Made by a program: the position numbers and the translations under genes. Below are positions 6,496-33,472 of a stretch of 35,940 nucleotides of DNA, piece by piece. The DNA is from an uncultured Myxococcales bacterium. Its GTDB lineage: Bacteria; Myxococcota_A; Polyangia; Polyangiales; Polyangiaceae. Where the stretch lies: NCBI GenBank assembly GCA_937902985.1, contig CALFNG010000547.1, positions 1-35,940 on the forward strand, written 5' to 3'. Position 1 is the stretch's first letter, and every line of letters begins with the position of its first letter. Below the pieces are notes generated by a model. That model saw only the letters and a list, made by a program, of their open reading frames with translations. It searched no databases and was not told the DNA's origin.

Positions 6496-7467
6496 ATGGC
6501 CGGGAGCATTCGAGAAGTTGGCGCGTACGGTGGGCCAGTCGGCGGGGAGCCTGGCGGTTCGAGCGGGGGTCCGCCCCTCGATCCCACCGTCGCCGCGCGC
6601 CTGCAGCGCTCCGAGGCCGCCGCGAGGCTCGATGCGTTCGCCGCGAGCGACCCTTGCGGCGATGGCGCGACCAACCAGCTCGATCACGGTCGCCAGTGCG
6701 ATACCGAGATCAACGATGCCGCTCTCTTCGAGAAGCAGCCCGGCGACGTCGACGCGGTGGACTCGCGAGACCTCCAGCAGGGCCGCCTCGCGGATTGCTA
6801 CCTCCTCGCTCCCCTGGCCGCCATGGCCGGAACGCCCGAAGGATGCGCCTTTCTCCGCCACGCCATCGTCGAGAACAAGAGCGCGGACGGACACGTCGTC
6901 AGTTACACGGTGACCCTGCACGAGCTTCAGCACGGCCGCTTCGGGATGGCCAGGGCACGCGACGTGCCCGTCACAGTCGATCCCCGCTTTGTGGTGGGGC
7001 ATGCGGGTCTTCGCCTGGAAGGCAATCACCACGAGATCTGGCCGCTCGTCGTGGAGAAAGCATGTGCCAAGTACCTCGGCGGTTACAACCAGCTCGACCG
7101 AGCGCGCTCCCCGTCTGACGCACTGGCGCTTCTGACCGGCCGTCAGCCGCAATACGTCTCCTTCGACTGGCCCAAACGTTGGGTATCGCCCTATTCCGAG
7201 ACCACCTTGAAGGCCGACCTGGCGAGCGGAAAGCTAGTCATCCTGAATTCGCGCTCGGACATCGCAGGCCCGACGCGGGCGCCCGAGAGGGAGGCCGCGC
7301 ACGGGTTGGCCCCGAGCCACGCTTACTTCGTGAAGGCGGTCGAAGAGCGCGATGGAAAGTGCTTCGTGCGTCTCGGCAATGTGTGGCCGGGCGCGAAACC
7401 TGTCGTCATTCCCTTCGATGAACTCACGAGGTGGTTCTCCGGCGTTCATCTCGGTTCGCTGAGGTAA
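6496..7467 (+). CDS. Calpain-family cysteine protease
   Basis: A 323-residue protein whose core matches the calpain (peptidase family C2) fold. The catalytic Cys101 sits in QQGRLADCYLLAPLAAMA, the bacterial version of the calpain QGxLGDCWFLAALA motif. His275 (GLAPSHAYFV) and Asn295 (RLGNVWPG) supply the rest of the triad in the expected order and spacing. Only the protease core is present, with no calcium-binding EF-hand region. The first ~30 residues are Gly/Pro-rich with no signal peptide. An AAAGGAG ribosome site precedes the ATG. The next gene starts 4 bases after the stop, so the two are co-translated. Protease activity is inferred from the intact triad; the substrate is unknown. Confidence 0.85.
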   Translation: MAGSIREVGAYGGPVGGEPGGSSGGPPLDPTVAARLQRSEAAARLDAFAASDPCGDGATNQLDHGRQCDTEINDAALFEKQPGDVDAVDSRDLQQGRLADCYLLAPLAAMAGTPEGCAFLRHAIVENKSADGHVVSYTVTLHELQHGRFGMARARDVPVTVDPRFVVGHAGLRLEGNHHEIWPLVVEKACAKYLGGYNQLDRARSPSDALALLTGRQPQYVSFDWPKRWVSPYSETTLKADLASGKLVILNSRSDIAGPTRAPEREAAHGLAPSHAYFVKAVEERDGKCFVRLGNVWPGAKPVVIPFDELTRWFSGVHLGSLR

Positions 7468-7471
7468 CCGC

Positions 7472-8203
7472 ATGGAGCCGATTCACTTCGCCATGAAGCT
7501 GATCGCCGTCGCGGGCGTGACAGCCTCCGTGGCGTGCAACGATGAACAGAAGGTCGGTGGCGGGTGCCCGCTGGTCAACAGTCCGATCGATCTCAGCGAG
7601 GCCGCTTGCGACTCGCATGACATCTGCCACTACATTTATGGAGACGCGCCTCAAAATATTCGAGGCGCCACCATTGGCCTCGACAGCTGCGGCTCCTCCG
7701 ACGACGCGACGTTCTTCGGCTCGTGGCAACTCGACGACGCGTCTTCGCGCGCCTTCAAGTGGAGAGGGCCTGTACGTATCGGAGGCATGTTCCCGTCGCG
7801 CGGCTACCTGGCCAGCCCCGTGCAATGCACGCCGGCCGATCGCTGCTACCCCTACCCGACCACCACGGTTGCCGTCGCCCTCACCGGCTCCGACTGGCCC
7901 AAGCTGGACGACGACGACGTCTTCATCCCGCTTCACGGCCTCGCCACGATCGATCACGCGTTCCATGCGAGCGCGACGCTCGATGACCGCGGCGACGCGG
8001 CTGGGGCGCGGGCCACCATCTTCGCCGAAGGTGTCCACGGCGCGAAGACCACGGACGCCGGCGTCGGCGATGCCTTCCCGTGGGGTCGCTACCTCGCCTC
8101 GGTCGTCCGTATCGTCGAGCCGCAGGACGGCGTGCTCGGGCCCGTCGGGTGGGTCGAGATCAAGTTGTCGGACGCGAAGCCCGACGCGGGGGCGCGTCGA
8201 TAG
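7472..8203 (+). CDS. Exported protein, copy 1 of tandem pair
   Basis: A 243-residue protein of no recognised family. Residues ~1-22 form an export signal ending SVACN, a weak lipobox (Ser at -3). The mature part has conserved Cys residues (GCPLV, AACDSHDIC, LDSCG, QCTPADRC), suggesting disulfides in an exported protein, and a C-terminal block (DAFPWGRYLASVVRI) almost identical to copy 2. It begins 4 bases after the calpain gene, so it is probably translationally coupled to it. It could be an inhibitor or immunity-type partner of the protease, or a surface lipoprotein; this is inference from position only. Confidence 0.75.
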   Translation: MEPIHFAMKLIAVAGVTASVACNDEQKVGGGCPLVNSPIDLSEAACDSHDICHYIYGDAPQNIRGATIGLDSCGSSDDATFFGSWQLDDASSRAFKWRGPVRIGGMFPSRGYLASPVQCTPADRCYPYPTTTVAVALTGSDWPKLDDDDVFIPLHGLATIDHAFHASATLDDRGDAAGARATIFAEGVHGAKTTDAGVGDAFPWGRYLASVVRIVEPQDGVLGPVGWVEIKLSDAKPDAGARR

Positions 8204-8267
8204 TGGACGCGGCGCACGCGCGCTCGGATGACGATCATCGCCGGGATTGATTGACCGGGCAGAGCCG

Positions 8268-8296
8268 CCGGCGCTCACCTCGGTTCTATGAGGTAA
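8268..8296 (+). pseudogene. Remnant of calpain 3' end carried with the duplication
   Basis: The 29 bases before copy 2 read G-A-H-L-G-S-M-R-stop in frame, matching the last residues of the calpain gene (G-V-H-L-G-S-L-R-stop). The same short spacer then leads to the ATG. This shows that the duplicated unit began inside the calpain gene. Confidence 0.8.
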
Positions 8297-8301
8297 CGGG
8301 C

Positions 8302-9033
8302 ATGGATCCGATTCCCTTCACCATATCGTTGATCGCCCTCGCGGGCGTGGCGGCCTCCATGGCGTGCGACGACCACCCGAAGGTCGGCAGTGGATGCCCG
8401 GCGGTCAACAGTGCGATCGACCTCAGGAAAGCCGTTTGCGGCTCGCGTGGCGTCTGCAATGACATTGCGGCAGACGAGCCTCCCCGGTTTCGAGGCGCGT
8501 ACATTGGCCTCGACAGCTGCAGAACCGCCAACGGCGCGGCACTCTTCGGCTCATGGCAAATCGACGGCGCGACTCCAAGCGCCTTCGAGTGGAAAGCGCC
8601 GGTACGTGCGGGAGGCGTCTTCCCGTCGCGCGGCTACCTGGCCACCCCCGTGCATTGCGCCCCCGCCGACCGGTGCTACCCGTTCTCGACGACGACGGTG
8701 GCTCTCTTCCTCACCGGCTTCGACTGGGTCGAGCCAGACGCCGACAACGTCTTCATCCCGCTTCATGGCGTCGCCACGATCGACCACGCCTTCCATGCGA
8801 GCGCAACGCTCGATGAGCGCCGTGACGCGGCTGCAGCGCGGGCCACCATCCTCGCCGAAGATCTGCACGGCGCAGAGACCACGGACGCCAGCGTCGGCGA
8901 CGCCTTCCCGTGGGGCCGCTACCTCGCCTCCGTCGTCCGCATCATCGAGCCGCAAGACGGCATGCTCGGGCCGGTCGGGTGGGTCGAGGTCAGGCTGTCG
9001 GAGCCGAAGCCGGATCCGGGCGTGCGTCGATAG
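8302..9033 (+). CDS. Exported protein, copy 2 of tandem pair
   Basis: A 243-residue paralogue of the preceding gene, with exactly equal length. The ATG at 8302 is chosen because it aligns with the start of copy 1 and the upstream bases are also shared. The signal region ends SMACDD (weak lipobox). The Cys positions and the C-terminal DAFPWGRYLASVVRI block are conserved, while the region around residues 35-65 has diverged (DSHDICHYIYG versus GSRGVCNDIAA). Both copies keep full frames, so both are probably functional. No family is recognised. Confidence 0.75.
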   Translation: MDPIPFTISLIALAGVAASMACDDHPKVGSGCPAVNSAIDLRKAVCGSRGVCNDIAADEPPRFRGAYIGLDSCRTANGAALFGSWQIDGATPSAFEWKAPVRAGGVFPSRGYLATPVHCAPADRCYPFSTTTVALFLTGFDWVEPDADNVFIPLHGVATIDHAFHASATLDERRDAAAARATILAEDLHGAETTDASVGDAFPWGRYLASVVRIIEPQDGMLGPVGWVEVRLSEPKPDPGVRR

Positions 9034-9221
9034 TGCGCCCCGCGCGTCCTCGACGCGTGGGGAACTCTATGACCGCCACGCCCTCGACCGCGGCTCCTTC
9101 TTTCACTTCGCAGTGGCCGAACCGCGCCAGGAAAGTCGCCGGGTGACCTTCCATGAACACCGGCGCCTGTTCGGCGTACTGGTCAAGTTCGGTCTGGTTC
9201 CGCGTGCGCGCCTACCGAGTC

Positions 9222-12200
9222 CTACGCCGCCGTATCCGGTTGGTCTCCGGGAGTGGCCTCGTCGTTGGTCTGGGGAAGGCCACGTCCCTTCCAGATTCCG
9301 AAGATGGCCGGGTACACCGTCAACTCGAGCAAGAATGACGTGACCAGCCCTCCGACCATGGGCGCCACGATGCGCTTCATGACGTCCGCTCCGGTCCCGG
9401 TGCTCCAGAGGACGGGAACCAGACCGATGATCATCGTGGCCACGGTCATGAGCTTGGGCCGGAGGCGCTTCGCCGCACCCTCGACGATGCTCTCGCGAAG
9501 GTCTTCGAGCGACCGGAGCCGCCCCTCGCGCGCGTGCCGGTCATAAGCGAGCGTCAGGTAGAGCAGCATCACGACGCCGGTCTCGGCATCGAGGCCGGCG
9601 AGAGCGATGACGCCGACCCAGACGGCGACGCTCACGTTGTAGTGCAGCAGAAAGAGAAGCCAGATGGCGCCCACGAGCGAGAACGGCACGGCGAGCATGA
9701 CGATCACCGTCTCGACGACCGACTTCGTGTTGAAAAAAAGCAGCACGAAGACGATGCCGAGCGTCAGCGGAATGACCCACTTCAGCCGTTCCTTCGCGCG
9801 CTCGAAGTATTTGAACTGGCCCACCCATTCGAGGCGGGTGCCGGCGGGAAGCTGCACGTCATGGGCGACGGCGTGCTTCGCCTCGGCCACGTAGTCGGCA
9901 ATGGGGCGATCGGTATCGACGAACACGAAGCCGACGAGTTTGCCTCCTTCGCTTCGAATCATGGGCGGCCCGAGAACGCCGCGGACGCTCGCGACCTGCG
10001 ACAGGGGGACCTGCGCGCCCTTACCCTCGTCGTCGCGCGTGCTGATGAGCGTGCGCACGAGGAGCTCGGGGTCGTCGCGGAACTCGCGCGCGTAGCGCAC
10101 GTTGATGGGATAGCGCTCGCGGCCCTCGACGGTCTCGGAGACGTTCTCCCCGCCGATCGACTGGGCGACGACCATGTTGACGTCTGCGACGCTGAGGCCG
10201 TGACGGGCGGCCGCCTCGCGGTCGACCTGGAAGTCGATGTAGAAACCGCCGGTCGAGCGCTCGGCGAAGGCGCTGCGCGTGCCGGGCACGTGGGAGACGG
10301 CGTGCTCGACCGCGATCGCGGCCTTCTCGATGGCCTCGAGATCGTCGCCGTACACTTCGATGCCGAGGGGGCTCTTCACGCCCGTCGCGAGCATCTCGGT
10401 GCGCGTCTGGATGGGCATCCACCAGACGTTCGGCATCCCGGGGTAGTGGAGCTTTTCGTCCATCTGCTTGAGAAGGGCGTCCCAGGTGAGCCCGGGCCGC
10501 CACTCGGCGCGCGGCTTGAGCACTACGATCACCTCGGCCATCCCCAGCGGGGCGGGATCGGTCGCCGTCTCCGAACGGCCCATCTTGCCGAAGACGCTCA
10601 CGACCTCGGGGAACTTCTTCAGCTCCCGGTCCATCGATTGCAAGATGACCGACGCTTCGTTTTCCGACATGCCGGGCGGCGCCGTGGGCATGTAGAGAAT
10701 GACGCCCTCGTTGAGAGGCGGCATGAATTCGCTGCTCAAGCGGAGCGCCGCGGGCGCGGTGAGAACCATCGTGAGCACCGCCGCGATGACGACCTTCCAG
10801 CGGTGCTCGAAGACGAAGCGCACGACCGGCGTGTAGGCCGCCGTCAGCCACCGGTTGATCGGATTCCGCGTTTCGTCGAGCACCTTGCCTCGAATGAAGA
10901 GGACCGCGAGCGCCGGGGTGAGCGTGACGGCGAGGATCGACGCGAAGCCGATCGAGTACGTCTTCGTGAACGCGAGCGGCTTGAAGAGACGGCCCTCGGT
11001 GGCCTCGAGCGTGAAGACGGGCAGAAACGAAATCGTGATGACGAGCAGCGAGAAGAAGATCGACGGCCCGACCTCTTGCATCGCGTGGATGATGACGTCG
11101 GTCCGCGGCTCTGGTTGGCCCGCATGCTCCCATTCGCCGAGCTTCTTGTGGATGTTCTCGATGATGATGATCGACGCGTCCACCATCGCGCCGATCGCGA
11201 CGGCGACCCCGCCGAGCGACATGATGTTCGCGGTCAAATGCTGGTAGAACATCGGCACGAACGCGAGCAGAACGCCGATCGGCAGCGTCAAGATGGGGAT
11301 CAGCGCGCTCCGCGCGTGGAGCAGAAAGACGAAGATGACGACGCTGACGACGATCATCTCTTCGATGAGCGTGTGCTTGAGCGTCGCGACCGATTCTTCG
11401 ATCAGCGTCGACCGATCGTACGTGGGGACGATCTCGACGCCCTTCGGCAGGCTCGGCTGGATCTCGCGGAGCCGCTCCTTGACCGCTTCGATCACGGTCA
11501 GCGCGTTCTCTCCGTATCGCATGATGATGATGCCGCCGGGAGCTTCGCCTTCGCCGTTGAGCTCCGACAGGCCTCGGCGGATATCCGGGCCGATGCTCAC
11601 TTGAGCGACGTCGCGCACGCGAACGGGGGTGCCGTTCACCACCTTGATGGGACTGCGGCCGATGTCGTCGGGATCCTTCACGTAGCCGCGGCCGCGGATG
11701 ATCTCTTCGTGGCCGCCCATCTCGAGAACGCGGCCGCCGACCTCCTGGTTCGACGCACGCACCGCCTTGACGACGTCGTCCATGCCGATGCCGTATCCGA
11801 GCAACTTCGTTGGATCGACATTGACTTGGTATTGCTTCACGAAGCCGCCGACGCTCGCGACCTCCGCCACGCCCGGAACGCTGCCGAGCGCGTACCGCAG
11901 GTTCCAGTCCTGGATCGAGCGCAGCTCCTGAAGGTCGTGCTTGCCCGTCCGGTCGACGAGCGCATACTCGTAGACCCAGCCGACCCCCGTGGCGTCGGGT
12001 CCCAAGATGGGATTGACCCCTCCCGGCAGCTTCGCGCGGACCGAACTCAGGTACTCGAGCACGCGGCTACGGGCCCAGTAGATGTCGGTGCCCTCGTCGA
12101 AGATGACGTTGACGAACGACATCCCGAACATCGACTGACCGCGAACGGCCTGCACCTTTGGCGCGGAGATGAGCACGGACGAAATGGGATACGTGACCTG

Positions 12201-12425
12201 GTCTTCAACGAGGTTCGGGCTCTGTCCCATCCACTCGGTGAAGACGATGACCTGCACGTCCGAAAGATCCGGAATCGCATCGAGGGGCGCTTGCCGTAAC
12301 GAAACGACTCCCCAGGCGGTCGCCGCGGCGACGAAGAGGATGACAACGAAAGGATTGCGGGCGCTCGCCGCGATGATGCGGGCGATCAAGCCCGGGCTTT
12401 CGGGCGAAGTGCTTGTGGACTTCAC
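9222..12425 (-). CDS. cusA: CusA-type Cu(I)/Ag(I) RND efflux permease
   Basis: A 1067-residue heavy-metal-efflux RND inner-membrane pump, close to the usual ~1050. It uses proton motive force to push Cu(I)/Ag(I) out through a CusB-CusC conduit. The helix-4 signature GAMVDASIIIIENIHKKLGEW is the CusA form. Met678 (RTEMLATG) and Met822 (GPPMIRSE) correspond to two of the three pore methionines described for E. coli CusA; the third position has GGENVSETVEG (Glu760-Asn761) where E. coli has a Met. The GTG start at 12425 overlaps the cusB stop (GTGA). It is the last gene of a minus-strand operon. Confidence 0.93.
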   Translation of the reverse strand: MKSTSTSPESPGLIARIIAASARNPFVVILFVAAATAWGVVSLRQAPLDAIPDLSDVQVIVFTEWMGQSPNLVEDQVTYPISSVLISAPKVQAVRGQSMFGMSFVNVIFDEGTDIYWARSRVLEYLSSVRAKLPGGVNPILGPDATGVGWVYEYALVDRTGKHDLQELRSIQDWNLRYALGSVPGVAEVASVGGFVKQYQVNVDPTKLLGYGIGMDDVVKAVRASNQEVGGRVLEMGGHEEIIRGRGYVKDPDDIGRSPIKVVNGTPVRVRDVAQVSIGPDIRRGLSELNGEGEAPGGIIIMRYGENALTVIEAVKERLREIQPSLPKGVEIVPTYDRSTLIEESVATLKHTLIEEMIVVSVVIFVFLLHARSALIPILTLPIGVLLAFVPMFYQHLTANIMSLGGVAVAIGAMVDASIIIIENIHKKLGEWEHAGQPEPRTDVIIHAMQEVGPSIFFSLLVITISFLPVFTLEATEGRLFKPLAFTKTYSIGFASILAVTLTPALAVLFIRGKVLDETRNPINRWLTAAYTPVVRFVFEHRWKVVIAAVLTMVLTAPAALRLSSEFMPPLNEGVILYMPTAPPGMSENEASVILQSMDRELKKFPEVVSVFGKMGRSETATDPAPLGMAEVIVVLKPRAEWRPGLTWDALLKQMDEKLHYPGMPNVWWMPIQTRTEMLATGVKSPLGIEVYGDDLEAIEKAAIAVEHAVSHVPGTRSAFAERSTGGFYIDFQVDREAAARHGLSVADVNMVVAQSIGGENVSETVEGRERYPINVRYAREFRDDPELLVRTLISTRDDEGKGAQVPLSQVASVRGVLGPPMIRSEGGKLVGFVFVDTDRPIADYVAEAKHAVAHDVQLPAGTRLEWVGQFKYFERAKERLKWVIPLTLGIVFVLLFFNTKSVVETVIVMLAVPFSLVGAIWLLFLLHYNVSVAVWVGVIALAGLDAETGVVMLLYLTLAYDRHAREGRLRSLEDLRESIVEGAAKRLRPKLMTVATMIIGLVPVLWSTGTGADVMKRIVAPMVGGLVTSFLLELTVYPAIFGIWKGRGLPQTNDEATPGDQPDTAA

Positions 12426-14128
12426 GGCGTTCCCTGCTTCGGCATCGGCGGCGCCGTGGGCGATTCGGCGCTGTCCCAGTACTTCGAGGCCGTGCTGATT
12501 CGAGCCTCGGCGGCAATGAGAAAGACCCCCGAGGTGGCCACTTGGTCTCCGGGCTTCAACCCGGACAGGACCTCGTACATCCCGTTCGACTCGGTGCCGA
12601 CCGACACCTCCTCCGGACGGAAGCGACCCTGCCCGAGGTCCACGAAGACGAGGCGCCGCGGGCCCGTGTACACGACGGCCGCCGCAGGGACCTGCAGGCG
12701 CGGTCCGAGATCCGCGCCGAGAGCGACGCTGGCGTACATCCCGGGCCTCAAATCGAGATCCTTGTTCGCGAGCTCGAGACGCACCTGGGCGGTGCGCGTC
12801 TGCGGATCGAGATACGGGTACACGTACGCGACCTTCGCGTCGTACGTCCGACCCGGAAGGTAGTCGAGGGTCACCGACGCGCCCTGGCCGGCGCGCACGT
12901 GTCCGAGATCGCCCTCGTAGACCTGAGCCTCGATCCACACCTTGGTCAACGCCGCGATGCGATAGAGGCGCATGCCCGCGTCGACCGACGCGCCTTCCAC
13001 GACGTTCTTCTCGATGATGAAGCCGCTCGCGGGCGCCGCGATCGAGACGCTCTCCGAGGGCGTGCCTTGCTTGACCAGGGCCTCGATCTGGGAGTCTTCG
13101 AGGCCCATCAAATGCAGTCTCTGGCGCGCAGCGCGCGCCAGAGACTCGACGCGATTCGGGGCACCGTCCGTCGAGAGCGAGGGCGTCGCCGCTCCCTGGT
13201 TCGCGAGGATGAAATCTTGCTCGGCGTTGTAGAGCTCCGGGCTGTAGAGCGACAGGAGGGGCTGCCCACGCGTGACCTTCTGGCCCGTCTGACTCACGTA
13301 CAGTTTCGTGATCCACCCGTGGACTTTCAGGTTGACGTCCGCGAGCGACGACTCGTCGTAAGTGACGTGACCGACCACGCGGAAGTCTCGGCGCATCGGA
13401 CCGAGAGTCACGGCCTCCGTGCGTACCCCGATCAGCTGGCGGCGCACGTCGTCGATCATGACCACACCCTCTTGCTGCTGCTCCTTGATCACCGGGATGA
13501 GGTCCATGCCGCAGATGGGGCACTTGCCCGGAGCCGCCTCCTTGACGGACGGATGCATCGAGCACGTGTAGTGATCGACCTCGCCGGGGTTGCCGCCCAT
13601 CGCGGAGCCACCCGGCATGGGGGCCGTCTCGCCCGTGGCGCCGCCCAGCGGCGACACGCCCGCAGTACCCACAGTCAGTGAGAACCTTTGCGAGACCGCC
13701 GCCGCAGGGGCATGAACGTCGACCTTGAGGGTCCAGCTGCCGTTCATCGGCAGATCGAAGTGGGCGCGGTAGACTCCGTCCTTTTCATGGTCCACGCGGG
13801 CCCCACCCTTCATCTCGGCCATCGCGCCCATCGCGGGCATGTCGTACGAGACTTGGACGACCGCGTCGTTGACGGGATTGCCGCTTGCGTCTCGGACCTG
13901 GACCACGAGCGCATTGTCCTGGGTCCGGGGAGGATCGGGGTCGAGCGACGCAGAAAGCGACAGACCGGAGGCGTGAACCGTGACGCTCGAGCCGGAGGAG
14001 CCCGCGATGCTCTTGCCCGAAAACCAGGCGATGAGCTGCCGGTGGAAGACCAACGCGAGCACGACGAGGGCGGCGACGAGCACGATCGACACGATTCGGC
14101 TTCGCGTTTTGCGATCTTGGACGCTCAT
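12422..14128 (-). CDS. cusB: CusB-type adaptor with YtkA-like and metal-binding domains
   Basis: A 568-residue periplasmic membrane-fusion protein, longer than E. coli CusB (~400). After an N-terminal membrane anchor (residues ~10-30), residues ~50-135 form a FixH/YtkA-like beta domain (DPDPPRTQDNALVVQV, PAMGAMAEMKG). Next comes a heavy-metal-binding module around Cys189 with the pattern C-x-M-H-P-x9-C-P-x-C-G-M. The rest is the standard lipoyl, hairpin and beta-barrel adaptor (HGWITKLYVSQTGQKVTRGQPL). The adaptor bridges CusA to CusC and may load Cu(I). Both ends overlap neighbours by 4 bases (ATGA with cusC, GTGA with cusA). Confidence 0.92.
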   Translation of the reverse strand: MSVQDRKTRSRIVSIVLVAALVVLALVFHRQLIAWFSGKSIAGSSGSSVTVHASGLSLSASLDPDPPRTQDNALVVQVRDASGNPVNDAVVQVSYDMPAMGAMAEMKGGARVDHEKDGVYRAHFDLPMNGSWTLKVDVHAPAAAVSQRFSLTVGTAGVSPLGGATGETAPMPGGSAMGGNPGEVDHYTCSMHPSVKEAAPGKCPICGMDLIPVIKEQQQEGVVMIDDVRRQLIGVRTEAVTLGPMRRDFRVVGHVTYDESSLADVNLKVHGWITKLYVSQTGQKVTRGQPLLSLYSPELYNAEQDFILANQGAATPSLSTDGAPNRVESLARAARQRLHLMGLEDSQIEALVKQGTPSESVSIAAPASGFIIEKNVVEGASVDAGMRLYRIAALTKVWIEAQVYEGDLGHVRAGQGASVTLDYLPGRTYDAKVAYVYPYLDPQTRTAQVRLELANKDLDLRPGMYASVALGADLGPRLQVPAAAVVYTGPRRLVFVDLGQGRFRPEEVSVGTESNGMYEVLSGLKPGDQVATSGVFLIAAEARISTASKYWDSAESPTAPPMPKQGTP

Positions 14129-15489
14129 CGCGCGTCCTCCTTTCCATCCAGTCCGGGCATGCGTCCCAGCGCGCGATCGAGCTCGCCGCGCCGCCGGTCG
14201 TAGTCAGCCTCCGCCACTTGCTGGTCGAGCTCGACGCCGCGCAGGTTCTTCTCCGCGTCGATCACCGAGACGAAGGGCACCCCCGACGAGACGAACGCCG
14301 CGCGGGCCGCGTCGACCTGTTGCCGGGCGATCGGGAGAAGCCGCTCCTCGAAGATGTGCAGGACGTGGTTCGCCTCCTCGAGCTGCTTCAACGCGACGAC
14401 GACCTGCGTGCGCGCCATGTCGCTCATTCGGGCCGCCTCCGCCTCGTACTGACCGCGCATGGCGTTCGCCTCGTCGACGGCACCGTGGCGCCGGCCCGCC
14501 TGGACTGGGAGGTTGAAGCTGAGCCCCACCATCCAGCGGTGCTCGGGCATGTCCCACATCGAGTTGTACGAAGTCGAGACCGTGACGTCGGGGTACGACT
14601 CCCGCTCGGCGCGCTCGCCGCGCGCTTCTTCTGCACGCGCGTGCTGCCGAGCGCCAGCGATGTCGGGCCGGCGGTCGACCGCCTCGCTCTCCAAGCGCGC
14701 TGGCGCCGCCGTCTCCGTAGCCGGCGGCACCGGAAGAGCCTTCGGCGGCGGGGGCAGCGGAAGCTCGGGATCGCGGTGCAGAAGCTCGTTCATTTGCGCC
14801 ATGGTGACGTCACGCTGCGAAGCGAGGATGACCGTGTCGTGCTCCATGTGCGTGAGCTCGAACTCGGCCTGCAGCGAGTCCTGCGCCGATGCGCGACCCG
14901 CCTCGAATTGCGCGATCGCCGCCCCGTGCATCGACCGCATCAGCTCGACGTGATGCGCGTTGATCTCGATCGACCGAACGGCGACGAAGTACGCGTCGTA
15001 GAGCAGCGACGCCGTGAGCGCGAGCTCGCGACGGGCGGCTTCGTAGTCGCATCGCTGGGCGTCGGCCTCCGCCTTGGAGATCGTCTCCTCGAGTGAGAGT
15101 TTGCCCGGCCACGGCAGCCTCTGGCTGATCATCCCGGTCCAGCCGAAGGGAGCGCTCGAGGATCCGATCGACAGCGGAGCCACCTCGAGGGTCACCATCG
15201 GGTCTTCGAACGCCCCCGACTGTCGAACGCGCGCGATGGCGCCGCGCCAGGCCTGCCGTGCCGACTCGATCGAGCGGTTCCGACTCAGCACGGCGCGCAC
15301 GTAGGCGGAGCGACCGAGCACCGGCCCGTTCAGAGTGGCGTCGTCGTCCGCCTGCTGGCGCTCGTCGGCGACTGCGCGCTCGGGCTCGGCTCGCATCGCG
15401 TCGTACGACTCGGCGCCGGTCGTGGCGCAACCCAGAAGCAGCATCGCTGGCGCGGTCCAGCAGGCCCGGCTCGAGATCCACACGTTCAT
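14125..15489 (-). CDS. cusC: CusC-type outer-membrane efflux lipoprotein
   Basis: A 454-residue outer-membrane factor of the TolC/CusC family, forming the exit duct of the cus pump. The start at 15489 has a GGGAAG ribosome site and gives a signal peptide with lipobox LLLGC, so the protein is probably acylated. Two long alpha-helical repeats with Gln/Glu/Ala-rich stretches follow (residues ~75-230 and ~265-440), including SVIDAEKNLRGVELDQQVAEAD near the C-terminus. A Pro/Leu-rich spacer lies between them. The stop overlaps the cusB start. Confidence 0.9.
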   Translation of the reverse strand: MNVWISSRACWTAPAMLLLGCATTGAESYDAMRAEPERAVADERQQADDDATLNGPVLGRSAYVRAVLSRNRSIESARQAWRGAIARVRQSGAFEDPMVTLEVAPLSIGSSSAPFGWTGMISQRLPWPGKLSLEETISKAEADAQRCDYEAARRELALTASLLYDAYFVAVRSIEINAHHVELMRSMHGAAIAQFEAGRASAQDSLQAEFELTHMEHDTVILASQRDVTMAQMNELLHRDPELPLPPPPKALPVPPATETAAPARLESEAVDRRPDIAGARQHARAEEARGERAERESYPDVTVSTSYNSMWDMPEHRWMVGLSFNLPVQAGRRHGAVDEANAMRGQYEAEAARMSDMARTQVVVALKQLEEANHVLHIFEERLLPIARQQVDAARAAFVSSGVPFVSVIDAEKNLRGVELDQQVAEADYDRRRGELDRALGRMPGLDGKEDAR

Positions 15490-15648
15490 GACACTTCCCG
15501 ACGCACGCGGGCCGAGCCCGACGTACATGATCAGACGACAGAGATCGCCCGCCGCACGGGAGGGTGCAGTCAGGCGCGAAGCTCGCGGACGCGCGATCGC
15601 CGTTTCAGCGCGTCGCGGTCAATCCCTGGGCGAGCCTCGCCGGGCGTC

Positions 15649-16619: not shown

Positions 16620-19121
16620 ATGGTCACATCAAAGGACCTCACCGGTTCCGCCGCGTCGAATCCTCACGGCGAACAGCAGGGCTCTCCCGTCGACGAGAAG
16701 GCGCGAGACCCCGTCTGCGGCATGGCGGTCCGCCGCGCGAACGCCAAGTGGATCACCGAACACGACGGGCAGACGTACTTCTTCTGCAACCCACGGTGCC
16801 TGACGCGGTTCCAAGAGGACCCCGACAAGTACCTCAGTCCCAAGCCGGCCCCGGCGGCCGCGCCCGCACCCGCTTCCGCACCCGCACCCGCGGCGGGCAC
16901 GGTCTTCATCTGCCCGATGCACCCTGCGGTACGCTCGCCGACGCCCGGCAGCTGCCCCGACTGCGGCATGGCCCTCGAGCCCGACGTACCGGTCGCCGCG
17001 ACCAAGGTCGAATACGTCTGCCCCATGCACCCGGAGATCGTCCGGGGCGAGCCGGGCGCGTGCCCCATCTGCGGCATGGCGCTCGAGCCCCGCACCATCA
17101 CGCTCGAAGAGCTGCCCAACCCGGAGCTCGTCGACATGACGCGACGGTTCTGGTGGTCGCTCGCCCCCACGGCCATCGTCGTGCTGCTCGGCATGGCGGA
17201 GATGATTCCCGGGCAGCCGCTCGCCCACGCGCTTTCGGCGCGAACCCTCCAGTGGGTCGCGTTCGTGCTGGCGACCCCCGTCGTCGTCTGGGCCGGCTGG
17301 CCGTTCTTCGAACGAGGCGCGGCCTCGATCGTCCGGCGCAGCCTGAACATGTTCACGCTCATCGCGCTCGGCACCGGCACGGCGTACGCCTTCAGCGTCG
17401 TCGCGACGATCGCGCCCTCGCTCTTTCCCGCCTCGCTCCGGCGGACGGACGGCACCGTCGACGTGTACTTCGAGGCGGCCGCCGCGATCACCGTCCTGGT
17501 TCTTCTGGGGCAGGTGCTCGAGCTCCGCGCGCGCAGTCGAACCGGGCACGCCATCCGCTCGCTCCTCGGGCTTGCCCCGAAGACCGCCCGGCGGCTCCGC
17601 GCCGACGGAGGCGAGGAGGACGTGTCGCTCGACCAGGTGCAGCCGGGGGACCGCCTGCGCGTCCGCCCCGGCGAGCGCGTACCCTGCGACGGGACGGTGC
17701 TCGAGGGCTCGAGCGCGGTTGACGAGGCGATGATCACCGGAGAGCCGCTGCCGGTATCGAAGACGCCCGGCTCCGCCGTCACGGGCGGTACCGTCAACGG
17801 AACGGGCGGCTTGCTGATGAAGGCCCAGCGCGTCGGCAGCGACACGCTCCTTGCCCAGATCGTCCGTCTCGTCAGCGAGGCGCAGCGAAGCCGCGCCCCG
17901 ATCCAGCGCCTCGCGGACAAAGTGGCCGCCCTCTTCGTCCCGGCCGTGATCGCGTCGGCCGTGATCACGTTCGCCGTCTGGGCCCTGGCCGGACCCGATC
18001 CCCGCGTCGCGCACGCGCTCGTCAACGCCGTGGCCGTCCTCATCATCGCGTGCCCGTGCGCGCTCGGGCTGGCGACCCCGATGTCGATCATGGTGGGCGT
18101 GGGCCGCGGCGCCACGATGGGCGTCCTCTTCAAGGACGCCCAGGCCCTCGAGACCTTGCAGACCGTCGATACGATCGTCGTCGACAAGACGGGCACGCTC
18201 ACCGAGGGGAAGCCTCGCGTCGTCTCGGTGCTCGCCGCGCCCGGATTCGACGGGTCCGAGGTGATCCGGCTGGCCGCCAGCCTGGAGCGCGGCAGCGAGC
18301 ATCCCGTCGCGGGCGCGATCGTGACCGACGCGAAAGCCAGGGGGCTCGCGCTCGAGGAGCCCGCGAAGCTCCGGGCGAGCGCTGGAAAAGGAGTCTCCGG
18401 TCAGGTCAGCGAGCGCCGCGTCGGGGTCGGGAATCAGGCCTTGCTCGAGGAGCTCGGCGTCGTGGACTCGAGCCTCGACGAGCCAGCGGAATCGCACCGG
18501 GCGCAGGGCGAGACCGTCGTCTTCGTCGCGATCGACGGCCGGCTGGCCGGCCTCCTCGGCATCGCCGATCCCATCAAAGAAGAAGCGCGCGACGCCGTCC
18601 GCGCGCTGAAGGACGACGGCGTTCACCTCGTCATGCTGACCGGAGACACGCGGACGAACGCCCTCATCGCCGCCCGAGTGCTCGGCATCGACGAGGTCGA
18701 GGCCGGCGTGCTCCCGGCGCAGAAGGGCGAAGCCGTGAAGCGGCTCAAGGCGCAGGGGCGCATCGTGGCCATGGCCGGCGACGGCATCAACGACGCCCCT
18801 GCCCTCGCCGAGGCCCACGTCGGCATCGCAATGGGAACGGGGACGGACGTCGCCTTGCAGAGCGCGGGGGTCGTTCTCCTGCGAGGCGATCTTCGCGGCC
18901 TCGCGCACGCCCGCGCCCTGAGCCGCGCCACGATGCGCAATATCCGGCAGAACCTGTGGCTCGCGTTCGTCTACAACGCGGTCGGCATTCCCGTCGCCGC
19001 GGGCGTTCTCTATCCCTTCCTGGGCGTTCTGCTCAGCCCGATGATCGCGAGCGCGGCGATGAGCCTCAGCTCCGTGTCGGTCATCACGAACGCGCTGCGA
19101 CTTCGGCACGTACGTATCTAG
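16620..19121 (+). CDS. copA: Cu(I)-exporting P1B-1 ATPase with YHS and two metal-binding modules
   Basis: An 833-residue copper P-type ATPase. Instead of the usual ferredoxin-like HMA domains, the N-terminus carries a YHS domain (from Asp30, DPVCGM...FFCNPRC) and two C-x-M-H-P...C-P-x-C-G-M modules (from Cys98 and Cys134), separated by an Ala/Pro linker. The membrane core has Cys478-Pro-Cys480, phosphorylated Asp522 (DKTGTLTEG), GSEHP for nucleotide binding, [10 protein letters not shown], and a last helix [15 protein letters not shown] with the Cu(I)-type Met/Ser signature. It pumps Cu(I)/Ag(I) from cytoplasm to periplasm, feeding the divergent cus pump. The MerR-type promoter just upstream fixes the start near 16620. 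Confidence 0.94.
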
Positions 19122-19143
19122 TTCAGAGGCCGCACGAGATGCC

Positions 19144-19350
19144 TTGCGCGTTCGAAGCGTGGCTCCTACGCTCCCGTCCGTGAGCCTCTGGCGACGGCAA
19201 CCGGCTCCAAGCGGAAGCGCCGGAGCGTCCGTAACGACCGCAAGCGACGCGGGCGTCATCTACACCTGCCCCATGCATCCCGAGGTGCAAGAGAGCGCCC
19301 CGGGCCACTGTCCCAAATGCGGAATGACTCTCGTTCCGAAGAAGCCGTGA
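19144..19350 (+). CDS. Small heavy-metal-binding protein
   Basis: A 68-residue protein whose C-terminal half is one metal-binding module of the same pattern as in CopA and CusB (C-P-M-H-P-x9-C-P-x-C-G-M). The N-terminal part is basic and Ser/Ala-rich. The start is uncertain: TTG at 19144 or GTG at 19180, neither with a strong ribosome site. It lies 22 bases after copA in the same direction, so co-transcription is likely. It may act as a copper buffer or chaperone for CopA; this is inference. Confidence 0.7.
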
Positions 19351-19394
19351 AGCATCTCTTTTGCATGGTCTCGCTGGCGCTTCTCGGCGGGTGA
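19347..19394 (+). pseudogene. 15-codon signal-peptide stub ending where a lipobox Cys is expected
   Basis: A GTG overlaps the stop of the metal-binding protein (GTGA) and opens [15 protein letters not shown] followed by TGA. The peptide looks like a lipoprotein signal whose lipidated Cys codon (TGC/TGT) has become TGA. Beyond the stop the same frame runs only to 19446. It is either a truncated lipoprotein gene or chance. Confidence 0.35.
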
Positions 19395-19439
19395 AGAACG
19401 CGACGTTCCGGTGGCCGTTTGCTCTTGACCGAGCCGGGG

Positions 19440-21329
19440 TCACCGCTTGCTTGATCGAAGAAGTCGCAGACCGTTGAGTGTCACGAGCAGCGTGCTTCCC
19501 TCGTGCCCGACGACCCCCCAGGGAAGCGTAATCCACCCGAGCAGGTCCGACCCGACGAGGACGACCATCATCCCCAGGGCCAGGACGAGGTTCTGCTTCA
19601 CGACACGAAGGGCCCGTCGCCCGAGAGCTACGGCATAGGCGATCTTCTCGAGCTCGTCCGTCGTCAGGACGATGTCGGCGGTCTCGAGCGCCACGTCCGT
19701 CCCGGTCACTCCCATGGCAATGCCGACCGTCGACGAGGCGAGCGCGGGCGCGTCGTTCACGCCGTCGCCCACCATCGCGACCTGCCCGCAGCGACGCGTG
19801 AGTTCCTGGACCACGCTCACTTTGTCCTCAGGAAGAAGGCCCGCGTGAATCTCGACGATCCCGAGCTCCCTTCCGATCGCAGCGGCGGTTTCGCGGGTAT
19901 CGCCGGTGAGGAGCACCATGGGGCGGATGCCGAGGTCGACAAGCGCGTGGATGGCCTCGCGCGCCCGCGGGCGAATCGTGTCGCGCAAGGCGATCAAGCC
20001 CTGCGCCCGTCCGTCGCCGATCAAGACGACCGTCTTCCCATCCGCCTCGAGCCCGTGCTGGCGGGTGCTTATCTCGTTGGAGACCGTACCAAAGAGGGAT
20101 GACTTCCCTATCGACCATCGTTGACCGCCGACGGTGGCGTGCGCGCCTTCGCCGGGAATCGCCTGCAGATCCGACGCTGCGACGACCGCCAGGTTCCTGC
20201 GCTCCGCCTCGGCGACGATCGACCGTGCCAGGGGGTGTTCGGACAGTCTTTCGACCCCTGCAGCGATCGCGAGAAGCTCGTCATCCGCTGCCACCGAGAA
20301 CGAAAGAACATCGGTAACGACGGGACGCCCGGCAGTGACGGTGCCCGTCTTGTCGAAGGCCATCGCCCGGACACGCCCCAGGGCCTCGATGAACGCGCTC
20401 CCCTTGAACAAGATGCCGTTCCGGGCCCCGTTGGAAAGGGCCGAAAGCAGGGTAGGCATCATCGAGGCGGCGAGCGCGCAGGGCGACGCGACGACAAGAA
20501 AAATCATGGCCCGATAAAGCGCCTGTCGAAACGTCCACCACCCGGCCAGGCTCGGCAGCGCGACGACCAAGATGGCTCCGATCACCACGACCTTCGCGTA
20601 CGTCCGCTCGAACCGCTCGATGAACAGCTGGGCAGGCGGGCGCCGCTCTCGAGCGTCCTCCACGAGCTTCACCATGCGGGCGAGGAGGGTGTCGCCCCCC
20701 GGACGGGTGACGGTCACACGTAGCGCTCCGTGCCCGTTGATGGTTCCGGCAAAGACCTCGTCTCCCGGCCCCCTGTCGACCGCGATCGACTCGCCCGTGA
20801 TCGCGGCCTGGTTTACTGCAGAGAAGCCCTCGACGACCCTCCCATCCGCCGCTATCCGCTCGCCGGGCCTCACGAGGACCGTATCGCTCACGCCCAGCGT
20901 GTCCGCGCGGACGCGCTCTTCGCGTCCATCGCGGACCACCAGGGCATCTTCCGGATGCAGGGCCATCAAGGCTTCGATGTCCCGCTTCGTGCGCGCGCCC
21001 GCGTAGCCCTCGAGCGTTCCGCTCGAGGCGAAGATGAAGATGAGCAGGGCCCCATCGAACCAGTAGCCAATGGCCGCGGCGCCGATCGCGGCGACGACCA
21101 TGAGCAGATCGACGTCCAGCTCCCGGTCTTTGACGAGCGTTCTGGTGCCCTCGATCGCCTGGCGGTACCCGCCGAGGACGTAGCCCAGAAGATAGAGCGC
21201 GTTCGTTCCGACGAGCCCGACGCCCGCCCGAGAGGCAAACCACCCCGCTGCAACGAAGACGGCACACAGGGCCGTCGTGTACGCCTCCCCGTGCCTTTCC
21301 CAGAGTTTCGCATAGGCCACGGACCGCAT
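19440..21329 (-). CDS. P1B-4-type (Co/Fe/Ni) metal-exporting ATPase
   Basis: A 629-residue heavy-metal P-type ATPase without an N-terminal metal-binding domain. The membrane motif is Ser282-Pro-Cys284, not CPC, and the last membrane region has His609 in GHEGSTLLVTLNGLRLL. SPC plus HEGST defines the P1B-4 group (CoaT/CtpD-like), which exports Co2+, Fe2+ or related ions. Asp326 (DKTGTVTAG) is phosphorylated; SEHPLA and GDGVNDAPAL are present. The start at 21329 lies 20 bases after the regulator gene, with no clear ribosome site. It is convergent with the copA cluster. Confidence 0.9.
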   Translation of the reverse strand: MRSVAYAKLWERHGEAYTTALCAVFVAAGWFASRAGVGLVGTNALYLLGYVLGGYRQAIEGTRTLVKDRELDVDLLMVVAAIGAAAIGYWFDGALLIFIFASSGTLEGYAGARTKRDIEALMALHPEDALVVRDGREERVRADTLGVSDTVLVRPGERIAADGRVVEGFSAVNQAAITGESIAVDRGPGDEVFAGTINGHGALRVTVTRPGGDTLLARMVKLVEDARERRPPAQLFIERFERTYAKVVVIGAILVVALPSLAGWWTFRQALYRAMIFLVVASPCALAASMMPTLLSALSNGARNGILFKGSAFIEALGRVRAMAFDKTGTVTAGRPVVTDVLSFSVAADDELLAIAAGVERLSEHPLARSIVAEAERRNLAVVAASDLQAIPGEGAHATVGGQRWSIGKSSLFGTVSNEISTRQHGLEADGKTVVLIGDGRAQGLIALRDTIRPRAREAIHALVDLGIRPMVLLTGDTRETAAAIGRELGIVEIHAGLLPEDKVSVVQELTRRCGQVAMVGDGVNDAPALASSTVGIAMGVTGTDVALETADIVLTTDELEKIAYAVALGRRALRVVKQNLVLALGMMVVLVGSDLLGWITLPWGVVGHEGSTLLVTLNGLRLLRSSKR

Positions 21330-23518: not shown

Positions 23519-26500
23519 ATGTGGATCGTCCGTCTGGCGCTCCGGCGTCCCTACACGTTCGTGGTCCTCGCGATGCTCATCCTGCTCATGGGTGTGCTCG
23601 AGATCCTTCGAACGCCGACCGACATCTACCCGGAGATCAACATCCCGGTGGTCGCGGCGGTCTGGTCCTACACCGGGCTCGCGCCCTCCGAGATGGAGGG
23701 CCGCATCACCGCGCAGTTCGAGCGCGCCGTGACGACCACCGTGAGCGGGATCGAGCACACCGAGAGCCAGTCGCTGGCCGGTGTGTCCGTCGTCAAGGTC
23801 TTCCTCCAGCCCGGGACGTCGATCGACGGGGCGATGGCGCAGGTGTCCGGCGTGGCGCAGCCCGTCATGAAGGCGATGCCGCCGGGCACCACGGCTCCGC
23901 TCATCATCCAGTACAGCGCGACGAACGTTCCGATCGTCCAGCTCGGTCTCTCGAGTCCGACCCTCGACGAGCAGCAGATCTACGACCTCGGAACGAACTT
24001 CCTTCGACCCGGGCTCGCGACCGTTCGGGGCGCGCAGCTGCCGCTGCCGGTCGGCGGCAAGCAGCGCGAGATCGTGGTCGACCTCGACACCTCCAAGCTC
24101 TTCGCGTGGGGCCTGTCGCCCGCCGACGTCTCGAACGCCGTGAACCTCCAGAACCTCGTCCTTCCGAGCGGAACGGTGAAGATCGGGCCGCAAGAATACC
24201 CGATCAACCTCAACGGTAGCCCCCCGGTCGTGGACGCTTTCAACGACCTTCCGGTCGAGACCGTCGGCGGGACGACCGTCTATCTGCGCGACGTCGCCCA
24301 CGTGCGCGACGGGTACGCGCCTCAGACGAGCCTCGTCGTGACGGACGGTACGAGGGGCGGCCTCTTGCCCGTGCTCAAGGCCCAGGGAGCGAGCACGCTC
24401 GATGTCGTCTCGCAGGTTCGCAAGACGGTACCGAAGGTGCTGGCGACGCTCCCGCAAGGCTTCCAGATCAAGCAGCTGTTCGACCAATCGGTGTTCGTGC
24501 GCGGCGCGATCGACGGCGTCGTCCGCGAGGCGACCATCGCCGCCGGCTTGACGGGGGTGATGATGCTGCTCTTCCTCGGCAGCTGGCGGAGCACGTTGAT
24601 CGTCCTCGTGTCGATTCCGCTCGCGCTCCTGGTCTCGATCATCGTCCTCGGTCTGCTCGGGCAGACGCTGAACCTGATGACCCTCGGGGGGCTGGCGCTG
24701 GCGGTCGGCATCCTCGTCGACGACGCGACGGTCGAAGTCGAGAACTTCCAGCGCCAGCGGGGCCTTCGCAAGCCGCTGGTGCAGGCGATCCTCGACGGCG
24801 CGCAAGAGATCGCGGCTCCCGCGTTCGTCTCGACGCTGTGCATCTGCATCGTCTTCGTGCCGGTCGTCTTCATCGCCGGCGCCGCGAACTCGCTCTTCGT
24901 GCCGCTGGCGATGGCCGTCGTCTTCGCGATGCTCACCTCGTACTTCCTGTCGCGCACGCTCGTCCCGACGATGGAGCACTACCTCCTCGCCAGCGAGGAG
25001 CCGGGGGGAGCGGGCCGGGGGCCGCTCGGGCGCGTGCACGGCGTCATCGAGCGCGGGTTCGAGCGGCTGCAGCAAACCTACGCGCGCGCGCTCTCCCGGC
25101 TGCTCGAGCGGCGCCGCGCCTTCATCGGGGCCTTCGCGGCGCTCTGCGTCGGCTCGTTCGGGCTCGTGCCGCTCCTGGGCCAGGACTTCTTCCCCAATGT
25201 GGACGCGGGCGAGCTCCGCCTCCATGTCCGGGCGCCCCCGGGTACCCGCATCGAGGAGACAGCGCGCCTCTTCGCTCGCGTCGAGGAGCACGTGCGTCAG
25301 CTGGTGCCGGCGGCCGAGCTCGATACCGTGATCCAGGACATCGGCGTTCCCATCAGCGGGATCAACCTCGTGCTCGGCGATCCGTCGATGATCTCGTCGG
25401 CCGATGGCGAGATGCTCGTGGCGCTGAAGCCGGCGCACAAGCCGACCGCGGACTACGTGCGCGCGCTTCGCCGCGACCTCGCCACGTCGTTTCCAGGCGC
25501 GACGTTCTTCTTTCTCCCCGCGGACATCTCGAGCCAGGTCCTGAGCTTCGGGCAATCGGCTCCGATCGACGTCCGGATCACGGGGCCGGTCACCAACGAA
25601 CACGCGAACATCGGCGTCGCGCGCGACCTGGTGAAGCGGTTCGCCGCGCTCCCGGGGGCGGCCGATGTGCACCTCGCCCAGGTCGTCGACACGCCGGAGC
25701 TCGACGTCGACGTCGACCGGACGCTGTCGCAGCAGGTCGGGCTGTCTCAGCGTGACGTGGCGGGCGACATCCTCGTGTCGCTCTCGTCGAACGTTCAGAC
25801 CGCGCCCAACTTCTGGCTCGACCCCAGGTCCGGCGTTCAGTACAGCGTCGCCGTCCAGACGCCCCAGTGGCGCATCGATTCGATCGACGCGCTCGGGAGC
25901 ATCCCGCTCACGGCCGGCGTGAAGACGTCCGCGCCTCCCCAGCTCCTGGCGAACGTCGCGACGACCTCGCGGACCCTCGGTCCGACCAACCTGACGCACT
26001 ACAACATCGCGCGGTCGTTCGACGTGCTCGTCGGCGTCGACGGAACCGACCTCGGCGCGGTGGCTTCCCCCGTGCAGCGCATCGTGGATGGAACGCGCCT
26101 GCCGCGCGGAACGTCGATCGCGGTGCAAGGGATGGCCGAGAACATGAACGCGTCGTTCCGCGGCCTGGCCCTGGGGATCGGCTTCGCGGTGGTGCTCGTG
26201 TACATGCTGATGGTCGTCAACTTCCAGTCGTGGCTCGAGCCTTTGATCATCCTCATGGCGCTGCCGGGCACGCTCGCCGGGATCGCCTGGATGCTGTTTC
26301 TCTCGAGAACGACGCTGAGCGTGCCCGCGCTGATGGGCGCCCTCATGAGCATCGGGGTCGCGACCGCGAACAGCATCCTCGTCGTCACGTTCGCATCCCA
26401 GGAGCTGCGCCGGGGTGGCGACGTGAAGGCGGCCGCCCTCGAGGCCGGCCGCACCCGCCTCCGGCCGGTGATCATGACCGCTGTGGCGATGGTGCTCGGC

Positions 26501-26665
26501 ATGCTTCCCATGTCGCTCGGCCTGGGCGACGGCGGCGAATCGAACGCACCGCTCGGACGGGCCGTGATCGGCGGTCTGCTCCTGGCAACCATGTCCACGC
26601 TGTTCTTCGTGCCGGTGATGTTCACGGTTCTGCAGCGGAACAAGCCGGCGGAGGTGTCCCCATGA
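23519..26665 (+). CDS. RND efflux permease (HAE-type)
   Basis: A 1048-residue RND pump with twelve membrane helices and two large periplasmic loops. The N-terminus RRPYTFVVLAMLILLMGVLEI and the helix-4 motif GGLALAVGILVDDATVEVEN carry the paired Asp of proton-relay RND proteins. No CusA-like pore Met motif is seen, so export of hydrophobic compounds is more likely than metals; the substrate is unknown. A G-rich ribosome site precedes the ATG at 23519. The stop overlaps the adaptor start (ATGA). Confidence 0.92.
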   Translation: MWIVRLALRRPYTFVVLAMLILLMGVLEILRTPTDIYPEINIPVVAAVWSYTGLAPSEMEGRITAQFERAVTTTVSGIEHTESQSLAGVSVVKVFLQPGTSIDGAMAQVSGVAQPVMKAMPPGTTAPLIIQYSATNVPIVQLGLSSPTLDEQQIYDLGTNFLRPGLATVRGAQLPLPVGGKQREIVVDLDTSKLFAWGLSPADVSNAVNLQNLVLPSGTVKIGPQEYPINLNGSPPVVDAFNDLPVETVGGTTVYLRDVAHVRDGYAPQTSLVVTDGTRGGLLPVLKAQGASTLDVVSQVRKTVPKVLATLPQGFQIKQLFDQSVFVRGAIDGVVREATIAAGLTGVMMLLFLGSWRSTLIVLVSIPLALLVSIIVLGLLGQTLNLMTLGGLALAVGILVDDATVEVENFQRQRGLRKPLVQAILDGAQEIAAPAFVSTLCICIVFVPVVFIAGAANSLFVPLAMAVVFAMLTSYFLSRTLVPTMEHYLLASEEPGGAGRGPLGRVHGVIERGFERLQQTYARALSRLLERRRAFIGAFAALCVGSFGLVPLLGQDFFPNVDAGELRLHVRAPPGTRIEETARLFARVEEHVRQLVPAAELDTVIQDIGVPISGINLVLGDPSMISSADGEMLVALKPAHKPTADYVRALRRDLATSFPGATFFFLPADISSQVLSFGQSAPIDVRITGPVTNEHANIGVARDLVKRFAALPGAADVHLAQVVDTPELDVDVDRTLSQQVGLSQRDVAGDILVSLSSNVQTAPNFWLDPRSGVQYSVAVQTPQWRIDSIDALGSIPLTAGVKTSAPPQLLANVATTSRTLGPTNLTHYNIARSFDVLVGVDGTDLGAVASPVQRIVDGTRLPRGTSIAVQGMAENMNASFRGLALGIGFAVVLVYMLMVVNFQSWLEPLIILMALPGTLAGIAWMLFLSRTTLSVPALMGALMSIGVATANSILVVTFASQELRRGGDVKAAALEAGRTRLRPVIMTAVAMVLGMLPMSLGLGDGGESNAPLGRAVIGGLLLATMSTLFFVPVMFTVLQRNKPAEVSP

Positions 26666-33190: not shown

Positions 33191-33472
33191 ATGAAGTCGA
33201 TTGCCGTCACCGAGTTCAAGGCGCAATGTCTCGCGCTCCTTGAGGCCGTTGCCCGCACCGGGCAGCCTCTCGTCGTCACCAAGCGCGGCAAGCCCCTGGC
33301 GCGCATCGTCCCGAGCGGACGTGGCGAGACGGTCTACCAGCAAGATAGCCTCGCCGGAACGGTGACGATCGTCGGGGATGTGGTGTCGCCCATTTTGCCT
33401 CCGTCGGCATGGGACGCGCTACGTGGTGAGCTCTTGCCGTCCGGGCGTCCCGCGACGAAGCCGCGAGGGTGA
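33191..33472 (+). CDS. Phd/YefM-type antitoxin
   Basis: A 93-residue antitoxin. The N-terminal DNA-binding fold is typical (MKSIAVTEFKAQCLALLEAV, then PLVVTKRGKPLARIVP). The C-terminal half (SLAGTVTIVGDVVSPI) is the toxin-wrapping segment common in antitoxins paired with PIN toxins. The stop overlaps the toxin's GTG (GTGA). It neutralises the toxin and should autorepress the pair. Confidence 0.88.
   Translation: MKSIAVTEFKAQCLALLEAVARTGQPLVVTKRGKPLARIVPSGRGETVYQQDSLAGTVTIVGDVVSPILPPSAWDALRGELLPSGRPATKPRG

What the first reader, a model, noticed from the sequence alone, without database searches (positions are those of the whole stretch)
6496..9033. Calpain-type protease coupled to a duplicated exported partner
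A minimal calpain core with an intact Cys101/His275/Asn295 triad and no signal peptide is followed within 4 bases by two paralogous exported Cys-containing proteins of equal length. One enzyme plus duplicated partners resembles effector-immunity or protease-inhibitor loci. I know of no described system of this composition.
Basis: inference. Interest (0 to 1): 0.62.

Follow-up and report, generated by a model that had tools for sequence, protein, structure and literature searches.

The report
Calpain protease with duplicated exported partner
A bacterial relative of the animal protease calpain sits in front of two copies of a small, apparently exported partner gene, and in other bacteria calpain genes are repeatedly followed in the same way by one of several unrelated partner genes, which looks like a weapon or protease encoded next to its own antidote.

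Summary
A calpain-family (C2) protease with intact Gln95/Cys101/His275/Asn295 (6496-7467) is followed 4 nt later by pA (7472-8203) and its tandem copy pB (8302-9033; 68% identical, all 7 Cys kept). The duplicated unit includes the calpain's last codons, so pA was already coupled to the calpain when it was copied.

pA/pB have no detectable relative in 377 genomes of the phylum, in plasmids or in viral contigs. Looking at the calpain instead of the partner changed the picture. Of 80 related calpain genes, 52 are followed by a gene from one of four partner families: DUF6406-like (mostly exported lipoproteins), a 120-aa family, right-handed beta-helices, or a 97-aa family. Almost all lie between -26 and +28 nt from the calpain stop. 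In two genomes the calpain is fused to a VgrG spike. Partners are also duplicated elsewhere (Janibacter, L168), and one family replaces another inside a supported calpain clade.

Best reading: a protease effector with cognate, variable immunity or inhibitor proteins. The window is a fifth, orphan, duplicated partner type. Delivery, activity and binding are inferred, not shown. pA/pB's C-terminal part weakly resembles DUF6406 (inconclusive).

The parts
6496..7467 (+). calpain-family (C2) cysteine protease, 323 aa; Q95, C101, H275, N295, W297; N-terminal ~80 aa of unknown function; no signal peptide visible
   Evidence: Pfam PF00648 64 bits; PDB calpains; residues; alignment with 8 relatives
7460..7471 (+). 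calpain stop codon with overlapping GAGG ribosome-binding site for pA (translational coupling inferred)
   Evidence: sequence; duplicated with pB
7472..8203 (+). partner pA, 243 aa; hydrophobic N-terminus with lipobox-like SVAC at C22; 6 further Cys; mature N-terminal half fast evolving (dN/dS 0.95), C-terminal half constrained (0.34)
   Evidence: no Pfam family
8268..8301 (+). relic of the calpain 3' end (GAHLGSMR*) plus copied ribosome-binding site in front of pB
   Evidence: blastn of the repeat; frame translation
8302..9033 (+). partner pB, tandem copy of pA, 243 aa, 68% identical, all 7 Cys kept

Best explanation
The locus is a calpain-domain protease effector with its cognate neutralising partner, tandem-duplicated. 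The calpain would be made without a Sec signal and leave the cell by another route (T6SS or a similar machine, or lysis), or act on neighbours or prey. pA and pB would be lipoproteins of the producer's envelope that bind and block the calpain arriving from kin or leaking at home. The duplicate lets the partner's fast-evolving N-terminal half diverge, either to cover a second toxin variant or as a spare immunity gene. Shown: a protease family with an intact catalytic set; adjacency and duplication of the partner after linkage; the same slot filled by other partner families next to other calpains; fusion of calpain to VgrG in two genomes. Inferred: activity, delivery, binding, neutralisation, and that this particular calpain is an effector.
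For: (1) Intact catalytic residues, invariant among relatives. (2) pA starts 4 nt after the calpain, and the duplicated unit carries the calpain tail, so linkage preceded duplication. (3) In 52 of 80 calpain loci from a GTDB-wide scan, the next gene belongs to one of four partner families (A DUF6406-like 20, B 18, C beta-helix 10, D 4), 49 of them at -26 to +28 nt. (4) DUF6406-like partner: 39 of 70 calpain genomes against 2 of 80 calpain-less ones; without the 13 training genomes 26/57 against 2/80, p 3e-10. 33 of 43 hits lie next to a calpain, 30 of them directly downstream. (5) Most A partners are lipoprotein- or signal-peptide-like while the calpains lack one, as for T6SS effectors with periplasmic immunity proteins (Tae4/Tai4, PMC3695027). 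(6) VgrG-calpain fusions in two genomes of the same family, each overlapped or directly followed by a beta-helix partner. (7) Partner duplication recurs: Janibacter L202 (two DUF6406-like genes), Aureispira L182 (two domains), L168 (family D twice). (8) Partner D sits inside a calpain clade otherwise of type A (SH-aLRT 97*), i.e. a partner swap; labels cluster on the tree with 18 changes against 49.8 when shuffled.
Against: No delivery domain, T6SS gene or eCIS gene lies in the window; VgrG genes are on another contig of the genome. The pA/pB family was found nowhere else, so conservation of this particular pairing cannot be tested. Signal peptides are atypical (no basic n-region). 28 of 80 calpain loci carry no recognised partner downstream (some at contig ends). 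No interface was computed. The window calpain is a long branch of unsure placement.
Confidence: 0.55

Rival explanations
1. Protease plus dedicated inhibitor, not an interbacterial weapon: the calpain is a housekeeping or prey-digesting enzyme and the envelope lipoproteins restrain it until release, like staphopain-staphostatin.
For: The same genomic facts (adjacency, partner families, catalytic integrity) fit. No delivery domain on the window calpain, and relatives without VgrG are common.
Against: VgrG-calpain fusions with partners, partner switching and duplication fit immunity better; an inhibitor of a cytosolic enzyme need not be exported.
Confidence: 0.25
2. Partners are substrates or surface tethers of the calpain: a signalling or surface-remodelling module in which the protease trims or releases the lipoproteins.
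For: Partners are exported and Cys-rich, and duplicated substrates are plausible. Two relatives' calpains (L039, L044) have hydrophobic pilin-like N-termini.
Against: Four unrelated partner families in one slot are hard to explain as substrates of one conserved protease domain; the window calpain shows no export signal.
Confidence: 0.12
3. Chance neighbours: a calpain gene next to an unrelated duplicated lipoprotein.
For: The pA/pB family is an orphan.
Against: 4-nt spacing with a ribosome-binding site overlapping the calpain stop, the calpain tail copied along with the partner, and the same slot filled next to most related calpains.
Confidence: 0.08

Closest known systems
Cpe1-Cpi1 papain-like protease toxin and immunity protein (PMC12136450)
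   Same: Papain-like-fold cysteine protease toxin followed directly by an immunity gene of 79-239 aa with strong sequence divergence; T6SS and CDI delivery; no known fold relatives of the immunity protein
   Different: Cpe1 is a papain-like toxin family; here the enzyme is a Pfam Peptidase_C2 calpain, with several unrelated partner families, mostly exported in type A; no activity shown here
Tae4-Tai4 T6SS effector and immunity (PMC3695027)
   Same: Effector without Sec signal, immunity protein shuttled to the producer's periplasm
   Different: Tae4 cuts peptidoglycan; the substrate of the calpain is unknown
Bacterial calpains (MEROPS C2; PMC4631099)
   Same: Same catalytic family; rare and patchy; some fused to WXG100 secretion domains and suspected toxins
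   Different: The passages read mention no adjacent partner genes, operons, DUF6406 or T6SS; partners are new here
Pfam PF19944 DUF6406
   Same: Occupies the slot directly after calpain genes in Myxococcota, Bacteroidota and Actinomycetota; all-beta domain
   Different: pA/pB do not match it in Pfam; only a weak C-terminal resemblance to an extended profile

Membership tests
Calpain family C2 (Peptidase_C2) | Sequence similarity over the catalytic core | tested here: met
   PF00648, 64.3 bits against cut-off 23.8; PDB calpains
Calpain family C2 (Peptidase_C2) | Cys/His/Asn catalytic residues plus oxyanion Gln | tested here: met
   Q95, C101, H275, N295
Calpain family C2 (Peptidase_C2) | Proteolytic activity | not testable with these tools
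   needs purified protein
DUF6406 (PF19944) for pA/pB | Pfam match over gathering cut-off | tested here: not met
   no Pfam family even at E 10
DUF6406 (PF19944) for pA/pB | Remote profile similarity of the C-terminal part | tested here: inconclusive
   extended profile: pA 6.9 bits, 1 of 4000 shuffles, above all other non-partner proteins of 292; pB 2.2 bits, 23 of 4000; earlier profiles and HHalign not significant
Effector-immunity (polymorphic toxin) system | Partner gene directly after the toxin gene | tested here: met
   4 nt gap; relatives
Effector-immunity (polymorphic toxin) system | Conserved enzyme with variable, swappable partners | tested here: met
   four partner families plus pA/pB; D nested among A
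Effector-immunity (polymorphic toxin) system | Delivery domain or secretion locus | tested here: not met
   absent in the window; present in relatives as VgrG fusion; own genome has 3 VgrG on another contig
Effector-immunity (polymorphic toxin) system | Toxicity neutralised by the partner | not testable with these tools
   needs co-expression assay
Cpe1-Cpi1 | Membership in the Cpe1 protease family | not tested
   only Peptidase_C2 was reported by Pfam; no direct comparison with Cpe1 made
Known protease-inhibitor folds (chagasin, staphostatin, cystatin) for the DUF6406 partner | Shared fold | tested here: inconclusive
   AF2 model pLDDT 95.7, all-beta; best VIA Z 7.6 (rmsd 3.5, 80 aligned) to CcsBA; none of these inhibitors listed
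Bacterial lipoprotein (lipobox) for pA/pB | Hydrophobic segment with lipobox Cys and a basic n-region | tested here: inconclusive
   lipobox-like SVAC/SMAC at C22, but no K/R in the first 7 residues

The most novel reading that the evidence does not exclude
Bacterial calpains are a widespread class of protease effectors or controlled proteases, each encoded with its own antidote: at least five unrelated partner families (DUF6406-like lipoproteins, a 120-aa family, beta-helix proteins, a 97-aa family, and the orphan Cys-rich pA/pB pair) sit in the same downstream slot, are duplicated and are swapped between calpain lineages. DUF6406 would gain its first function, as calpain immunity or inhibitor.
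Probability: 0.5. Interest if true: 0.78.

Novelty: new variant of a known kind. Interest (0 to 1): 0.62.

Why it matters
Calpains are studied almost only as calcium-dependent regulators of animal cells; their bacterial relatives have no known role, and a 2015 review argues that none may have been properly characterised biochemically. A recurring calpain-partner pair in several phyla gives a directly testable function for bacterial calpains, a first function for DUF6406 and for several unnamed families, and candidate new natural calpain inhibitors. It would also bear on the idea that eukaryotic calpains descend from a bacterial gene, possibly one used in conflict.

Tried and rejected
Partner homology: no Pfam, NCBIfam (best RiPP_CPAC 17.7 bits against a cut-off of 60), PHROGs, PADLOC or PDB relative. 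Weak hits in the order search are chance: antisense or low-complexity. The phylum hit in G441 lies in an aldolase-like ORF. Direct membership of pA/pB in DUF6406: tested with three growing profiles and HHalign; not significant until divergent partners were added, so left open. Structure of pA from two sequences failed (pLDDT 30). The PF19944 Pfam search of whole genomes mostly hit short stretches of long ORFs; the purpose-built profile A4 was used instead. The fold of the DUF6406 partner matches no known inhibitor in the lists, which does not exclude one. An initial Fisher test on rough counts was replaced by one without the training genomes.

Full report
What is there. The ORF at 6496-7467 encodes a 323-residue calpain-family protease (PF00648, 64.3 bits; PDB calpains) with Q95, C101, H275, N295 and W297 in place. 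It is single-domain and has no visible export signal. Four bases after its stop, pA (7472-8203) begins, using a GAGG that overlaps the calpain stop. pB (8302-9033) is a tandem copy: 68% protein identity without gaps and 82% DNA identity from 7439-8205 to 8268-9035. The copied unit starts inside the calpain: a relic GAHLGSMR* stands before pB where the calpain ends GVHLGSLR*. The calpain-pA order is therefore older than the duplication. All seven cysteines are kept. The mature N-terminal half diverges at dN/dS 0.95, the C-terminal half at 0.34. Export is likely (hydrophobic stretch, lipobox-like SVAC/SMAC) but atypical, because the n-region has no early basic residue. No terminator-like or promoter-like site was found between the genes.

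Distribution of the partner. pA/pB match no family and no other genome: 144 of the class, 183 of the order, 377 of the phylum, viral contigs, plasmids, and a limited pattern scan of genome contigs. Two congeners in the order search lack both the calpain and pA/pB.

Turning to the calpain. Calpains of this type are patchy: 7 of 144 class genomes, 7 of 183 order genomes with any hit (some of them weak), and 68 of 377 phylum genomes. Reading their neighbours showed that stand-alone calpains are nearly always followed by a small gene. Thirteen of these genes were aligned (A4); nine match Pfam DUF6406. A profile search of calpain genomes against calpain-less ones gave 39/70 and 2/80; without the 13 genomes used to build the profile, 26/57 against 2/80, Fisher p 3e-10. 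Of 43 hits, 30 lie directly downstream of a calpain and 3 just upstream. The genomes were chosen for having a calpain, so adjacency, not co-occurrence alone, is the stronger point.

A wider scan (GTDB r220) gave 80 calpain loci in Myxococcota, Planctomycetota, Bacteroidota and Actinomycetota. In 52 the next gene belongs to one of four families: A DUF6406-like (20), B a 117-125 aa family beginning MAKPPEP (18), C right-handed beta-helix (10), D a 96-99 aa family (4); 49 of 52 start between -26 and +28 nt from the calpain stop. With correct starts, most A partners carry lipoprotein-like or other signal peptides. Duplication recurs: two DUF6406-like genes after the Janibacter calpain (L202), two domains in an Aureispira lipoprotein (L182), and two D genes in L168. 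In two genomes of the window's own family the calpain is the C-terminal domain of a VgrG spike, overlapped or directly followed by a beta-helix partner. On a calpain tree the partner labels are strongly clustered (18 changes against 49.8 shuffled, 0 of 200), and type D lies inside a supported clade otherwise of type A, i.e. a partner replacement (quick tree, long branches including the window's are unsure).

Mechanism. A conserved protease domain with several unrelated, duplicated and replaceable neighbours is the signature of toxin-immunity loci, and VgrG fusion shows that at least some calpains are T6SS cargo. The best reading for the window is a calpain effector (or tightly controlled protease) with duplicated exported neutralisers. 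The T6SS precedent for an unsignalled effector with periplasmic immunity is Tae4-Tai4 (PMC3695027, abstract), and for a papain-like protease toxin with divergent adjacent immunity proteins it is Cpe1-Cpi1 (PMC12136450). Activity, delivery and binding are inferred. The window's genome has three VgrG genes on another contig, which permits but does not show T6SS delivery.

Is pA/pB a DUF6406? Pfam says no. Profiles of growing breadth align its C-terminus in the same register each time; with the most divergent partners included, pA scores above every other non-partner protein tested (6.9 bits, 1 of 4000 shuffles), pB less (2.2 bits), while HHalign is not significant. This was a post hoc search; it is recorded as inconclusive. 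The DUF6406 domain itself folds confidently as a small all-beta domain (pLDDT 95.7) with no clear solved relative; pA did not fold, and co-folding was not available.

Novelty. A 2015 review of bacterial calpains notes WXG100 fusions and possible secretion; the passages read mention no partner genes. No paper on DUF6406 or on calpain effectors with partners was found in the library searched. The kind (protease effector with immunity) is known; the calpain version with several partner families, and this orphan duplicated pair, appear undescribed.

Noticed in passing
L041:2581-5403 and L042:3581-6523: VgrG-calpain fusions (Phage_GPD, Phage_base_V, Gp5_trimer_C and Peptidase_C2 in one protein) each directly followed by a beta-helix protein: candidate T6SS protease effectors in the window's family.
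   Followed up: partly
L039:5388-6497, L044:5500-6576: Two stand-alone calpains have a hydrophobic pilin/TadE-like N-terminal segment, suggesting another export or anchoring route; judged by eye from the sequence only.
   Followed up: no
L158:1007-4753: Annexin repeat and calpain domain in one 1248-aa bacterial protein with a DUF6406-like lipoprotein after it.
   Followed up: no
L166-L169 and others: Calpain at the C-terminus of ~1500-aa proteins, polymorphic-toxin-like, with the 97-aa partner family D.
   Followed up: partly
L156, L167: Public MAG records titled Klebsiella pneumoniae whose calpains group with those of Myxococcota and Deltaproteobacteria MAGs; probably mislabelled.
   Followed up: no
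window 33191-33864: PhdYefM antitoxin and PIN toxin pair.
   Followed up: no
window 9222-15528, 16620-21329, 23519-27864: Cus-type RND efflux system, two P-type ATPases and a second RND pump: a heavy-metal resistance block next to the calpain locus.
   Followed up: no
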